Source of the DNA: Agathobaculum sp. Marseille-P7918
Lineage (GTDB): Bacteria > Bacillota > Clostridia > Oscillospirales > Butyricicoccaceae
Assembly (NCBI RefSeq): GCF_900625105.1
Contig: NZ_UYYD01000007.1
Coordinates: 47,118 to 111,117, forward strand
Direction: 5' to 3'
DNA: 64,000 bases
The position numbers were made by a program, and so were the translations under genes. Below are positions 4,365 to 31,167 of the stretch, piece after piece. Positions within the stretch are counted from its first letter, which is position 1; each line of letters begins with the position of its first letter. The notes below the pieces were generated by a model. That model had not been told where the DNA came from. It saw only the letters and a program-made list of their open reading frames with translations, and did not search any database.

Positions 4365-4414
4365 GACTGGTTTATGGCAACGCTGCTCGAAGCAAGCGTT
4401 GCACAGGGATACTC
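4365..4414 (+). other. attL junction of the asnB island
   Basis: asnB sequence ends and island sequence begins at the dinucleotide GA (4389-4390). The left half is asnB coding sequence with GCAACGCTGC at 4377-4386. The right half is the island arm AGCGTTGC (4395-4402), four bases, GGATAC (4407-4412). Its mirror arm is found at the other end of the island (31120-31137). Confidence 0.8.
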
Positions 4415-4430
4415 CCCTTCCGGTGCTGCG

Positions 4431-4468
4431 CAAAAAAGCAGCCGCAGGTTCTCTGCGGCTGCTTTTTT
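4431..4468. terminator. Bidirectional intrinsic terminator
   Basis: GCAGCCGCAG, five-base loop, CTGCGGCTGC, with T6 on the plus side and A6 on the other. It ends the sugar-importer transcript on the minus strand and would also stop transcription entering the island from the broken asnB. Confidence 0.9.
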
Positions 4469-4493
4469 GTTGTCTGTCTTGCGTGTGATATGC

Positions 4494-5606
4494 TCAGTGG
4501 AAGATTTCCCACTGCGTTTCCTTGTCAAACAGGTGCATTTTGTTTTTGTCCAACGCAAACGTCGCCTGCTCACCGGCCTGTCCGCGGAAGCGCGCCGGCA
4601 CGCGTGCGATCAGCTTGGTGCCCTTGCACTCCAGATATAAGTAGATCTCCGAACCCATCAACTCGGCAATGTCGATATCCGCGTGTACAATGCTGTCCGC
4701 GCTGGCCTCGAGGAAAATCTCCTCTGTGTGCAGGTCCTCCGGACGGATGCCGAGCACCACGTCCACACCCACATACTTGTCCAGCACGGCTTGATCGGCC
4801 TTGCCCTCGGGCACCGGGATGCTGAAGCCCAGAAAATCGATGAAATACCGGTCGTTTTCCTTGCGCAGCTGCGCGTCGATGAAGTTCATCTGCGGCGACC
4901 CGATGAAGCCGGCCACAAACAGATTGCACGGATAATCATACAGGTTCTGCGGCGTATCCGCCTGCTGGATGATGCCGTCCTTCATGACCACGATGCGGTC
5001 GCCCATGGTCATCGCTTCGGTCTGATCGTGCGTGACATAGACGAACGTGGTGTCCAGCCGCTTGTGCAGCCGGATGATCTCGCTGCGCATCGCGGTGCGC
5101 AGCTTGGCGTCCAGGTTGGACAGCGGCTCGTCCAGCAGAAAGACCGCCGGATTGCGCACCATGGCGCGGCCCAGTGCCACGCGCTGCCGCTGGCCGCCGG
5201 AAAGCGCCTTGGGCTTGCGGTCAAGCAGCGGCTCCAGATCGAGCACGCGCGCTGCCTCGTGCACCTTGCGGTCGATCTCGTCCTTGGGCATTTTGCGCAG
5301 CGACAAGCCGAACGCGATGTTTTTATATACAGTCATATGCGGATACAGGGCATAGTTCTGGAACACCATCGCAATATCGCGGTCCTTCGGCGCGACCCCG
5401 TTGACCAGCCGGTCGCCGATGAACAGCTCGCCTTCCGTGATATCCTCCAGACCCGCGATCATGCGCAGGGTGGTCGATTTGCCGCAGCCGGACGGCCCGA
5501 CCAGAATGACGAACTCTTTATCCTTGATCTCCAGATTCAGGTCGGGGATAACCTCGACCCCGCCCGGATATACCTTTTTTACATGCTTGAATGTAATGCC
5601 TGCCAT
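4494..5606 (-). CDS. ABC transporter ATP-binding protein, MsmX/UgpC/MalK type
   Basis: Cytoplasmic ATPase that powers a carbohydrate ABC importer. The 370-residue protein has Walker A GPSGCGKST (about residues 37-45), Q-loop QNYALYPHM, signature LSGGQRQR, Walker B VFLLDEPLSNLDAKLR and the switch His in VTHDQTEAM, then the C-terminal OB-like regulatory domain of the MalK class. It follows the two permease genes on the same strand. Many Firmicutes use one shared MsmX ATPase; here the ATPase is linked to its importer. A bidirectional terminator follows. Confidence 0.92.
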   Translation of the reverse strand: MAGITFKHVKKVYPGGVEVIPDLNLEIKDKEFVILVGPSGCGKSTTLRMIAGLEDITEGELFIGDRLVNGVAPKDRDIAMVFQNYALYPHMTVYKNIAFGLSLRKMPKDEIDRKVHEAARVLDLEPLLDRKPKALSGGQRQRVALGRAMVRNPAVFLLDEPLSNLDAKLRTAMRSEIIRLHKRLDTTFVYVTHDQTEAMTMGDRIVVMKDGIIQQADTPQNLYDYPCNLFVAGFIGSPQMNFIDAQLRKENDRYFIDFLGFSIPVPEGKADQAVLDKYVGVDVVLGIRPEDLHTEEIFLEASADSIVHADIDIAELMGSEIYLYLECKGTKLIARVPARFRGQAGEQATFALDKNKMHLFDKETQWEIFH

Positions 5607-5622
5607 ATGTTATCGCTCCTTC

Positions 5623-6474
5623 TCATTCTTTGACCGCGCCTGCCGTCAGGCTGGATACTACCTGTTCCTGGAACAATGCGAATATCACAATGCTGGGGAT
5701 GACGGCGATCGTGATCGCCGCGAACATGGCGGTATAGTTAAAGCTGAACTGCGACGTGAAATAGCTCAGCGACAGCGGAAGCGTACGGGCATCCTGTCCG
5801 CTCGTCAGGATCAACGCAAAGGTGAATTCATTCCAGTTGTTCAAAAATGCCAGCACGGCAGCGCTCGCCAGACCGCCCTTGGCGCAGGGCAGCATGATCT
5901 GGAAGAACGTGCGGACAAAGCCCGCGCCGTCCACATACGCCGCTTCTTCCAGACTTCTGGGGATGGAGAGGAAGGTACTGCGCAAAATCAGCAGCGACAT
6001 CGGCAGATTCAGCGCGGTGTATACCAGAATCAGTCCGGTTTTGGTGTCCGTCAAGCCCAGATTGTTGATGACGAGATACACCGGGTTGAGCAGCGCGGTC
6101 ATCGGCACAACCATGGACAGCGACAGCAGCCAGAACAGAATATTCTTGCCCCGGAACTGGCACCGCGCAAAAACGTACGCCGCCATGGCCAGAAACAGCA
6201 CATTGGCCACGGTTGCCACGCTGCTGATGATGACACTGTTGACAAAATACTTCAGAATCGGCGAAATTGCGATCGCCTGTTCATATCCGGTGAACTTGAA
6301 ACTGGTGGGAAGCGAAATTCCGTCGGTCAGGATTTCCGCATTGGTTTTAAAGGAAGACATGACAACCCAAACGATCGGAAATAATGCAACGATCACGCAC
6401 AGCGCCAGAAATATATATTTCAAAATCATCAGCAGGCGGCCTCTGTTGGTCAACTGCCCCCAAGTTCTATTCAT
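5623..6474 (-). CDS. Carbohydrate ABC transporter permease, MalG family
   Basis: 283-residue inner-membrane subunit of a CUT1-type sugar importer. About six hydrophobic segments; the EAA coupling loop that contacts the ATPase is visible as EEAAYVDGAGFVRTFFQIML in the C-terminal half. The N-terminal TNRGRLLMILKYIFLALCVI segment is the typical MalG first helix. It sits between the MalF-like gene and the ATPase with gaps below 20 bases, so the genes are co-transcribed. Substrate cannot be read from the permease; the neighbouring deacetylase and GH4 enzyme suggest a host- or plant-derived oligosaccharide. Confidence 0.92.
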   Translation of the reverse strand: MNRTWGQLTNRGRLLMILKYIFLALCVIVALFPIVWVVMSSFKTNAEILTDGISLPTSFKFTGYEQAIAISPILKYFVNSVIISSVATVANVLFLAMAAYVFARCQFRGKNILFWLLSLSMVVPMTALLNPVYLVINNLGLTDTKTGLILVYTALNLPMSLLILRSTFLSIPRSLEEAAYVDGAGFVRTFFQIMLPCAKGGLASAAVLAFLNNWNEFTFALILTSGQDARTLPLSLSYFTSQFSFNYTAMFAAITIAVIPSIVIFALFQEQVVSSLTAGAVKE

Positions 6475-6486
6475 TGCAAAGCCTCC

Positions 6487-30176: not shown

Positions 30177-30369
30177 TTTATCCTCCCTGTTTCCCGTTTT
30201 CTGTGAAATGAAGTGCTTCCATTATAACAAAAAAACGCCCGTTCTCCCACACGGTTTTCGCGTTTTTTTGCATCCGCGCCGCATTTTCTACAAATGGGCC
30301 AACCGGCCGCGCCGCAGACCGCCCTCTCTTGTCTTGTTTGACGCAAACCGGTGGTGCGCACGCGCCCCG

Positions 30370-30403
30370 CAAAAAGGCAAAACCGGCTGTATCAGCCGGT
30401 TTT
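30370..30403 (-). terminator. Intrinsic terminator after xpt
   Basis: Minus strand AAAACCGGCTG, three-base loop, CAGCCGGTTTT, then GCCTTTTT. The stretch 30177-30369 holds the permease leader with a -10 TATAAT at 30221-30226 and an AT-rich inverted repeat, but no purine riboswitch. Confidence 0.85.
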
Positions 30404-30418
30404 CTGCGTGTTTTTCGG

Positions 30419-30997
30419 TCAGTCCCGGAAGCGCACGGTCTGGGTTGCCGCATCCATCCCGTCCACGATCGCCAGCGACTCGACCCGCAGGCCCTTTTCG
30501 CGCAGCATCTTGCCGCCGCACTGGAAGCCCTTTTCGATCACGATGCCGATGCCCGCGACCTTGGCATGCGCCGCCTCGATGATCTGGCACAGACCCATCG
30601 CCGCGCAGCCGTTGGCGAGGAAATCGTCGATGATGAGCACATTCTCGTCCGGTTTCAAAAAGCGGCTGGCTACAATGACCTCGTATTTGCGCTTGTGGGT
30701 AAACGATTCGATCGGCGCGGACAGCATCGTGCCGTCCAGATTGATCGACTGCGACTTTTTGGCAAACACCACCGGCACATTGAAATACTGCGCCGCGATT
30801 GCCGCAATGCCGATGCCCGAAGCCTCAATGGTCAGGATCTTATCGATCTTGACGTCGGCAAAACGCCGCTTGAACTCCTTGCCGATCTCGTTGAACAGCT
30901 CGATATCCATCTGATGGTTGAGGAAATTGTCCACCTTGAGCACATTTCCCTCTTTGATCACGCCGTCTTTTCTGATTCGTTCTTTCAAAAGTTCCAT
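30419..30997 (-). CDS. xpt: Xanthine phosphoribosyltransferase
   Basis: 192-residue cytoplasmic salvage enzyme that makes XMP from xanthine and PRPP. The PRPP motif is VLIIDDFLANGCAAMG; the N-terminal MELLKERIRKDGVIKEGNVL and DGTMLSAPIESFTH regions are typical of Xpt rather than adenine PRTases. Start chosen at MELLKER after AAGGAAG. It is the last gene before the island's right end. Xpt and the permease form a salvage route opposite to oxidation by the hydroxylase. Confidence 0.93.
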   Translation of the reverse strand: MELLKERIRKDGVIKEGNVLKVDNFLNHQMDIELFNEIGKEFKRRFADVKIDKILTIEASGIGIAAIAAQYFNVPVVFAKKSQSINLDGTMLSAPIESFTHKRKYEVIVASRFLKPDENVLIIDDFLANGCAAMGLCQIIEAAHAKVAGIGIVIEKGFQCGGKMLREKGLRVESLAIVDGMDAATQTVRFRD

Positions 30998-31044
30998 GCT
31001 ATCGTTCTTCCTTGTCCGTTTCATCCTCGTTGTTTCTTATAAAA

Positions 31045-31073
31045 AGCATACCATTTTTCGCCCGCACTGTATA
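31045..31073 (-). promoter_or_regulatory. Candidate xpt promoter
   Basis: Minus strand -35 TATACA (31068-31073), 17-base spacer, -10 TATGCT (31045-31050). The leader is only about 45 bases, so there is no room for a purine riboswitch. The promoter is inside the island, 57 bases from attR. Confidence 0.5.
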
Positions 31074-31117
31074 GCTTTTTTTCACGGTTTTTTAACAGAT
31101 TGCTGATTTTTATCGAT

Positions 31118-31167
31118 CGGTATCCTTTTGCAACGCTGCGCGACCGCAAGGACCGCATGAGCATGTT
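31118..31167 (+). other. attR junction of the asnB island
   Basis: Island arm GTATCC (31120-31125), four bases, GCAACGCT (31130-31137), then the shared GA at 31142-31143, then asnB sequence. GCAACGCTGC recurs exactly at both junctions, 26,753 bases apart. Confidence 0.8.

What the first reader, a model, noticed from the sequence alone, without database searches (positions are those of the whole stretch)
4391..31143. A 26.75-kb serine-recombinase metabolic island splits asnB and carries its own reconstitutable attP
The 5' and 3' parts of asnB sit 26,753 bases apart on the same strand. Joined at a shared GA (4389-4390 and 31142-31143) they restore an in-frame 609-codon gene with the family motif LLDRKDRMSM. 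Joining the island ends at the same GA gives arms GTATCC-N4-GCAACGCT and AGCGTTGC-N4-GGATAC at equal distance from GA; 16 of 18 arm positions (5-22) are symmetric. That is the form expected of a large-serine-recombinase attP with a non-palindromic core. The island holds one such recombinase and sugar plus purine genes, but no transfer, replication or phage genes that I recognise. I know of no described element with this make-up.
Basis: partly seen in the sequence, partly recalled or inferred. Interest (0 to 1): 0.95.

Follow-up and report, generated by a model that had tools for sequence, protein, structure and literature searches.

The report
Metabolic island splitting a sporulation-type asnB
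In Agathobaculum-type gut bacteria a gene for making asparagine is split at one exact codon by a DNA element that carries its own recombinase plus catabolic genes, and because both gene halves show purifying selection across species the element is predicted to be cut out in the spore's mother cell to rejoin the gene, which would be a new case of programmed gene rearrangement.

Summary
In detail: asnB is split by 26,753 bp, joining at the shared GA restores 609 codons, and the island ends form a 16/18 symmetric attP. Comparison changes its meaning. In the 25-genome genus set asnB is split at this codon in 16 and intact in 9. A relative of the window's recombinase (56-100% identical) sits in the asnB split in 14 of the 16 and is absent from the 9. 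Elements run from 10.8 to 43.6 kb with changing metabolic cargo. The split is old (asnB dS 0.36-0.89 among six split species), yet both halves are under purifying selection, as in intact genes. The two distant att arms diverge between species while staying complementary. Two intact genomes sit inside split clades, scar-free. Upstream of asnB is a conserved sigma-E-like site; sporulation genes are present; sigK of the same genome is split by a second recombinase element. I read it as a gene-intervening element of the skin/gin kind in an asnO-type gene, likely excised in the mother cell. Excision and its control were not observed. Against: the split/intact pattern is not clearly clustered on a marker tree, and two split genomes lack an intact recombinase there.

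The parts
2930..2958 (+). sigma-E-like promoter site ahead of asnB (ACATATT-N14-CATAAGAA)
   Evidence: aligned site at -63 to -71 in 23 of 23 genomes; window score 6.1, background fraction 2.3e-4, at least 12 other window sites score higher; promoter function predicted
2994..4390 (+). 5' part of asnB (465 codons plus GA)
   Evidence: joined product matches TIGR01536 above its cut-off
4389..4418 (+). attL: GA core and element-side arm
4494..8770 (-). cargo: sugar-type ABC transporter (ATPase, two permeases, binding protein)
   Evidence: Pfam
9061..12399 (+). cargo: histidine kinase and AraC-type response regulator
   Evidence: Pfam
12514..16905 (-). cargo: 1463-aa PIG-L deacetylase-like protein with SLH domains
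17272..20585 (+). cargo: GH4 glycosidase, PfkB kinase, LacI regulator
20684..20712 (+). sigma-E-like site ahead of the recombinase operon (GCATGTT-N14-CATACATA)
   Evidence: one of 2 strict-pattern hits in the window, both strands; PWM score 5.6; not conserved in other elements; predicted only
20735..20869 (+). 44-aa ORF, candidate recombination directionality factor
   Evidence: similar ORF found by motif in 13 of 14 recombinase loci, the 14th (G001) read by eye; function not tested
20908..22470 (+). large serine recombinase, 520 aa
22529..26744 (-). cargo: MobA-like NTP transferase and XdhA/XdhC/XdhB-like molybdenum hydroxylase
   Evidence: XdhA NCBIfam match below its cut-off
26913..28689 (+). 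cargo: MarR regulator and MATE transporter
28740..31024 (-). cargo: xanthine/uracil-type permease and xanthine phosphoribosyltransferase
31120..31143 (+). attR: element-side arm and GA core
31142..31576 (+). 3' part of asnB (from GA to the stop)

Best explanation
The element splits asnB at one codon and carries its own serine recombinase and metabolic cargo, and it is likely a sporulation gene-intervening element that the recombinase is predicted to cut out in the mother cell, which would rejoin an asnO-type asparagine synthetase gene there while the spore keeps the split, cargo-bearing chromosome. Shown by sequence: the split, the att sites, the recombinase inside, in-frame restoration, the same split in relatives, purifying selection on both halves, att arms that diverge yet stay complementary. 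Inferred: that excision happens, that sigma-E or sigma-K drives asnB (and perhaps the recombinase operon), that the small ORF sets the direction of recombination, and that this AsnB acts in sporulation as B. subtilis AsnO does.
For: Same-codon split in 16 of 25 genus genomes; recombinase in 14 of these 16 and in 0 of 9 intact ones. dN/dS of the 3' half: median 0.089 in split (106 of 120 pairs usable), 0.117 in intact (31 of 36); 5' half 0.127 (90 of 91) and 0.138 (36 of 36). In G009, G017, G019, where recombinase, XdhA and asnB have like dS, the 3' half has dN/dS 0.014-0.029. attP symmetry 12-18 of 18 in 13 genomes with differing sequences. Scar-free intact asnB in G020 and G006, nested in split groups at support 100 on asnB and on spoIVA plus spoIIIAA. 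Sigma-E-like site upstream of asnB in 23 of 23; same layout at spoIIIAA (20 of 24) and sigK (8 of 8). Spo0A over cut-off in 21 of 25, spoIVA in 20 of 25. sigK of G000 is split by another recombinase element. B. subtilis asnO is under sigma-E, SpoIIID and sigma-K (PMC517825, passages).
Against: No read, transcript or culture data; no attP circle in assemblies. On the marker tree the split label needs 6 changes (at least 4 forced) and 89 of 500 shuffles do as well, so repeated gain is open; G010's recombinase is discordant with asnB. Split G005 has a frame-broken recombinase; G004 has none above 37% and G024 none at E 1e-90. The recombinase-operon promoter is weak and not conserved; the window's asnB site is outscored by at least 12 other window sites. 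spoIVA, also sigma-E-type, lacks the strict pattern (0 of 20). Orthology to AsnO was not tested.
Confidence: 0.72

Rival explanations
1. A site-specific mobile genomic island that uses asnB as its attB and spreads between species; asnB is simply lost in carriers.
For: Metabolic cargo, no conserved excision control seen at the recombinase, some recombinase exchange (G010), patchy presence on the marker tree.
Against: Both halves keep dN/dS as low as intact genes over dS 0.36-0.89; the layout is shared by G009, G017, G019 with like dS; I found no transfer or phage genes among the window ORFs scanned.
Confidence: 0.13
2. A reversible vegetative switch: excision turns asparagine synthesis on in growing cells short of asparagine, with the circle re-integrating or being lost.
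For: G000 has no AsnA and no other AsnB match at E 1e-30, so vegetative asparagine supply could depend on it; scar-free intact relatives exist.
Against: The conserved upstream site is sigma-E-like, not sigma-A-like; loss of a circle without replication genes would cost core purine genes.
Confidence: 0.1
3. The two asnB parts are made as separate polypeptides that work together, so no excision is needed.
For: Both halves are conserved.
Against: I see no ribosome-binding site ahead of the 3' part (read, not tested further); the arms would not need to stay complementary.
Confidence: 0.05

Closest known systems
gin element in gerE, Bacillus cereus ATCC10987 (PMC5595907; outline, abstract and discussion section read)
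   Same: Non-phage element inside a coding sequence of a sporulation gene, serine recombinase, att sites with inverted repeats and a short core, small extra factor for excision (GirX)
   Different: Other target gene; three recombinase genes; no catabolic operons described in what I read; our excision is untested; ours recurs across species and genera
skin elements in sigK (B. subtilis; C. difficile, PMC5025042, passages)
   Same: Split mother-cell gene restored by a serine recombinase; excised as a circle carrying attP; directionality factor CD1234 under sigma-E and SpoIIID
   Different: Prophage-like content; a sigma factor rather than a biosynthetic enzyme is split
SP-beta prophage in spsM (PMC4191935, passages)
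   Same: Precise in-frame rejoining of a mother-cell gene during sporulation
   Different: Active phage of much larger size; the window element has no recognised phage structural genes
yin element in yabG, Clostridium botulinum V73 (PMC10747680, passages)
   Same: Recombinase just after the 5' part and in the same direction, as in G007, G008, G010, G013 here; small putative directionality factor
   Different: Prophage-like and stated to be unique to one strain; excised form found in culture
cyanobacterial fdxN element, XisF recombinase (recalled; NCBIfam match)
   Same: XisF is the best NCBIfam match of the window recombinase, but far below cut-off (117 against 375 bits); programmed excision in a terminal cell (PMC5025042 passage mentions the heterocyst case)
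   Different: Heterocysts, nitrogen-fixation gene; not the same subfamily by the model's own cut-off

Membership tests
sporulation gene-intervening elements (skin, gin, vfbin, yin, SP-beta) | element lies inside a protein-coding gene and its precise removal restores the frame | tested here: met
sporulation gene-intervening elements (skin, gin, vfbin, yin, SP-beta) | element codes for its own site-specific recombinase, with att sites that have a shared core and symmetric arms | tested here: met
   exceptions G005 (frame-broken), G004 and G024 (none found at the split)
sporulation gene-intervening elements (skin, gin, vfbin, yin, SP-beta) | the split gene is a mother-cell sporulation gene | tested here: inconclusive
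   sigma-E-like upstream site in 23 of 23; no expression data; AsnO orthology not tested
sporulation gene-intervening elements (skin, gin, vfbin, yin, SP-beta) | excision during sporulation, circular attP product | not testable with these tools
   no reads or cultures; attP pattern in 0 viral contigs and only attL-type hits in 3 of 87 genomes
sporulation gene-intervening elements (skin, gin, vfbin, yin, SP-beta) | recombination directionality factor | tested here: inconclusive
   short ORF ahead of the recombinase in 13 of 14 loci by motif plus G001 by eye; function unknown; motif weaker in G005, G008, G013, G023
prophage | phage structural genes | tested here: not met
   none recognised among the window ORFs scanned (the tail-protein match falls on an SLH domain); no match in phage records or, for the recombinase, in viral contigs
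ICE or mobilizable element | relaxase or conjugation genes | tested here: not met
   none recognised among the window ORFs scanned; not every small ORF scanned; in other elements 43 of 64 listed ORFs gave 54 Pfam families, 25 shown, none of these kinds among the 25

The most novel reading that the evidence does not exclude
A germline/soma split of metabolism in bacteria: a domesticated programmed-excision island makes the mother cell throw away whole catabolic operons, including a purine module found in 21 of 25 genus genomes, at the moment it rejoins the only asparagine synthetase gene found in the genome, so the asnB switch has become a protected dock in which vegetative metabolic genes gather and which unrelated recombinases have captured more than once.
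Probability: 0.35. Interest if true: 0.88.

Novelty: new variant of a known kind. Interest (0 to 1): 0.74.

Why it matters
The intervening elements in the papers I saw are mostly single cases in Bacillus and Clostridium, and most look like phages or their remains. Here one codon of a biosynthetic gene is split across a gut genus and in other genera, with catabolic cargo and a natural series of diverged att pairs. It makes testable why sporulation genes are kept split, how recombinase and att arms evolve together, and whether metabolic genes use such docks as shelter. It also warns that split asnB in these genomes should not be written off as a pseudogene.

Tried and rejected
Recent one-off island: set aside because of the shared split and the selection data. 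Prophage: no structural gene recognised in the window proteins scanned, no phage-record or viral-contig relative. Excised circle in assemblies: the attP pattern (one mismatch allowed) gave 3 hits in 87 genomes, all reading as attL, and 0 in viral contigs. Plasmid relatives: the search hit its 5000-record limit; all counted matches are under 60% identity, the best listed 33%. A conserved recombinase promoter: not found. Omega from IQ-TREE codon models was not printed, so pairwise Nei-Gojobori was used. spoIVA as a sigma-E control did not fit the strict pattern, 0 of 20; spoIIIAA strict 6 of 13 anchored loci, 11 loci without anchor. In G000 the strict asnB hit (2910) is not the aligned site. Paper searches for an asnB/asnO element or Agathobaculum sporulation recombinase found none in the held library; two searches for a written sigma-E consensus gave nothing, so that consensus is recalled. 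Rows dropped before counts: G015 5' piece (truncated) from dN/dS and promoter counts; G005 recombinase (frame-broken) from the recombinase pairs, which also leave out G011 and G015 (no full 5' part); G008 spoIVA and G012 spoIIIAA from the marker tree; 21 of 64 listed ORFs of other elements were not scanned.
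Full report
Observation. asnB is split at 4390/31142 as described. The joined gene starts at 2994 and has 609 codons; its product matches TIGR01536, asparagine synthase, at 458 bits against a cut-off of 267. Island ends joined at GA match at 16 of 18 positions; 0 of 20,000 random window pairs do. Element content: sugar-type ABC transporter, two-component pair, PIG-L/SLH protein, GH4, PfkB, LacI, small ORF, recombinase, MobA-like protein, XdhA/C/B-like subunits, MarR, MATE, xanthine/uracil-type permease, xanthine phosphoribosyltransferase.

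Relatives. A recombinase search of named genomes gave 15 loci, 55-80% identical, most of them titled Agathobaculum, and none in viral contigs. In the protein database 327 proteins pass E 1e-60 (120 listed); listed identity falls from 54% or more in the first 99 to 42% or less after them. The genus set has 25 genomes: asnB is intact in 9 and split at residue about 466 in 16. Of the 16, 11 have both halves on one contig, 3 on two or more (G004, G008, G015), and 2 show one half only (G011, G024). A recombinase at E 1e-90 or better is in 15 of 25: 14 at 56-100% identity, all lying at split asnB, and one of 37% on another contig of G004. The nine intact genomes have none. In the family, 50 of 87 genomes have an asnB match at E 1e-50: 26 intact, 22 ending or starting at the same place (5 of them by one half only), 2 unclear. 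Recombinases of 56% or more are in 16 of the 22 and 0 of the 26 (Fisher 3e-8, but the genomes are related). In genus g3, G034, G035 and G041 carry a recombinase only 32-34% identical next to the break, on the strand opposite to asnB: by inference an independent capture of the same codon.

Age and selection. Pairwise dN/dS: 3' half, split genomes median 0.089 (106 of 120 pairs usable), intact 0.117 (31 of 36); 5' half 0.127 (90 of 91) and 0.138 (36 of 36). G009, G017 and G019 share the element layout, and dS of recombinase (0.50-0.59), XdhA (0.37-0.54) and asnB halves (0.39-0.64) are alike, so the element was probably already in their ancestor; over that time the 3' half has dN/dS 0.014-0.029. 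A dead gene would not look like this. Over 55 pairs of 11 genomes recombinase dS is 1.32 times asnB dS (median), Spearman 0.61; G010's recombinase groups with G015 and G007 while its asnB groups with G019 and G017, so exchange also happens.

Losses or gains. Intact G020 pairs with split G017, and intact G006 with split G021, at support 100 on asnB and on spoIVA plus spoIIIAA. Their asnB reads through GA without scar. Precise loss is the simplest reading. But on the marker tree the label needs 6 changes, at least 4 forced, and 89 of 500 shuffles are as low, so repeated gain is not excluded.

att arms. In 13 genomes with both ends the symmetry is 12 to 18 of 18. The arm sequences differ between species, and changes in one arm are often met in the other: G004 and G005 share a C-to-T with G-to-A change, G001 has its own block, G008 and G021 have others; G013 (12) and G010 (14) are the weakest. 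In the 11 one-contig genomes the two sites lie 10.8 to 43.6 kb apart. Arms that stay matched at such distance are expected if their joint use in excision or insertion is selected.

Sporulation link. Upstream of asnB an ATA-type -35 and a CATA -10 at N14/15 sit at -63 to -71 in 23 of 23 genomes; the divergent neighbour has a TTGACA/TATAAT-type site, read. In the same genus spoIIIAA (20 of 24) and sigK (8 of 8) show the same layout. A matrix trained on those 28 sites puts the asnB sites at background fractions of 1.4e-5 to 9.1e-4 per position; in the window at least 12 other sites score higher than the asnB site (6.1), so conservation carries the case, not the score. The strict pattern hits 11 of 23 asnB upstreams, with 13 hits in all in 937 kb, but 0 of 20 spoIVA loci. 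The sigma-E consensus is recalled. In other genera 6 of 11 asnB upstreams fit the loose pattern. Spo0A is over cut-off in 21 of 25 genomes, spoIVA in 20 of 25, spoIIIAA at E 1e-40 in 24 of 25 though under its curated cut-off. B. subtilis asnO is under positive control of sigma-E, SpoIIID and sigma-K, and its mutant is one of three in its set that did not sporulate like the wild type (PMC517825, passages); it is listed in the sigma-E regulon among sporulation genes (PMC4703394, one passage) and its inactivation is called asporogenous (PMC12575378, passages). That the Agathobaculum gene is an asnO ortholog is inferred, not tested.

Mechanism. In G007, G008, G010 and G013 the recombinase starts 149-299 nt after attL in the direction of asnB, so transcription of asnB would run into it; in the window it lies 16.5 kb away, with a weak sigma-E-like site of its own (20684-20712) that other elements do not share. 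A short ORF with a LKAQI.RIRQGFDRPLP-like motif precedes the recombinase in 13 of 14 loci by motif scan and in G001 by eye; the motif is weaker in G005, G008, G013 and G023. It is a candidate directionality factor, near the 53 aa of CD1234 in size (PMC10747680, passage). G000 has no AsnA and no further AsnB match at E 1e-30.

Cargo. XdhA is found in 21 of 25 genus genomes: in 10 inside the asnB element, in 11 elsewhere; G015, not counted, has a fragment at a contig end beside its recombinase (L010). Elements of G001, G005, G013 and G023 carry, among others, ethanolamine-use proteins, ABC transporters and acyl-CoA dehydrogenase (43 of 64 listed ORFs scanned, 25 of 54 families shown). So genes that are common in the genus have moved into or out of the element.

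Second element. sigK of G000 is split between L106 6845 and 17178, 10,333 bp apart; the parts share ATGTATCGCGC and rejoin into a sigma factor ending RIEKRALEKLRQSLANSE; a recombinase gene lies just inside. G010, G021 and G008 also break at SYVS, and G006 and G020 break at HIVKK, the position I recall as the skin site.

Verdict. A real, widespread gene-intervening element by its sequence record; new in target, cargo and breadth, not in principle. Excision, timing and cell type remain predictions.

Noticed in passing
L106:6845-17178 (G000:C17): sigK of the same genome is split near its 3' end by a 10.3-kb element with its own serine recombinase and symmetric arms; the halves rejoin in frame. 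G010, G021 and G008 break at the same residue.
   Followed up: partly
L110 about 5937; L111 about 6351: In G006 and G020 sigK breaks at HIVKK, recalled as the skin position; a partial match hints at the same in G011, not verified.
   Followed up: partly
L122, L123, L124: In three genomes of genus g3 asnB is split at the same codon next to a recombinase only 32-34% identical, on the opposite strand; in G035 the 3' half lies inverted on the same contig.
   Followed up: partly
L096 (G005), recombinase locus: The recombinase of split G005, a one-contig genome, is frame-broken although its att arms match 18 of 18: perhaps a locked split.
   Followed up: no
window 22529-31024: The purine module is inside the asnB element in 10 of the 21 genomes with XdhA and elsewhere in 11: genes that move between the chromosome and the element.
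   Followed up: partly
L056, L057 (G015): G015 holds two different 3' halves of asnB on separate contigs, either a mixed assembly or a second copy.
   Followed up: no
L023 / L120: Intestinibacillus massiliensis has a 3' half of asnB and, several kb away, a 64% identical recombinase stretch in the opposite relative orientation.
   Followed up: no
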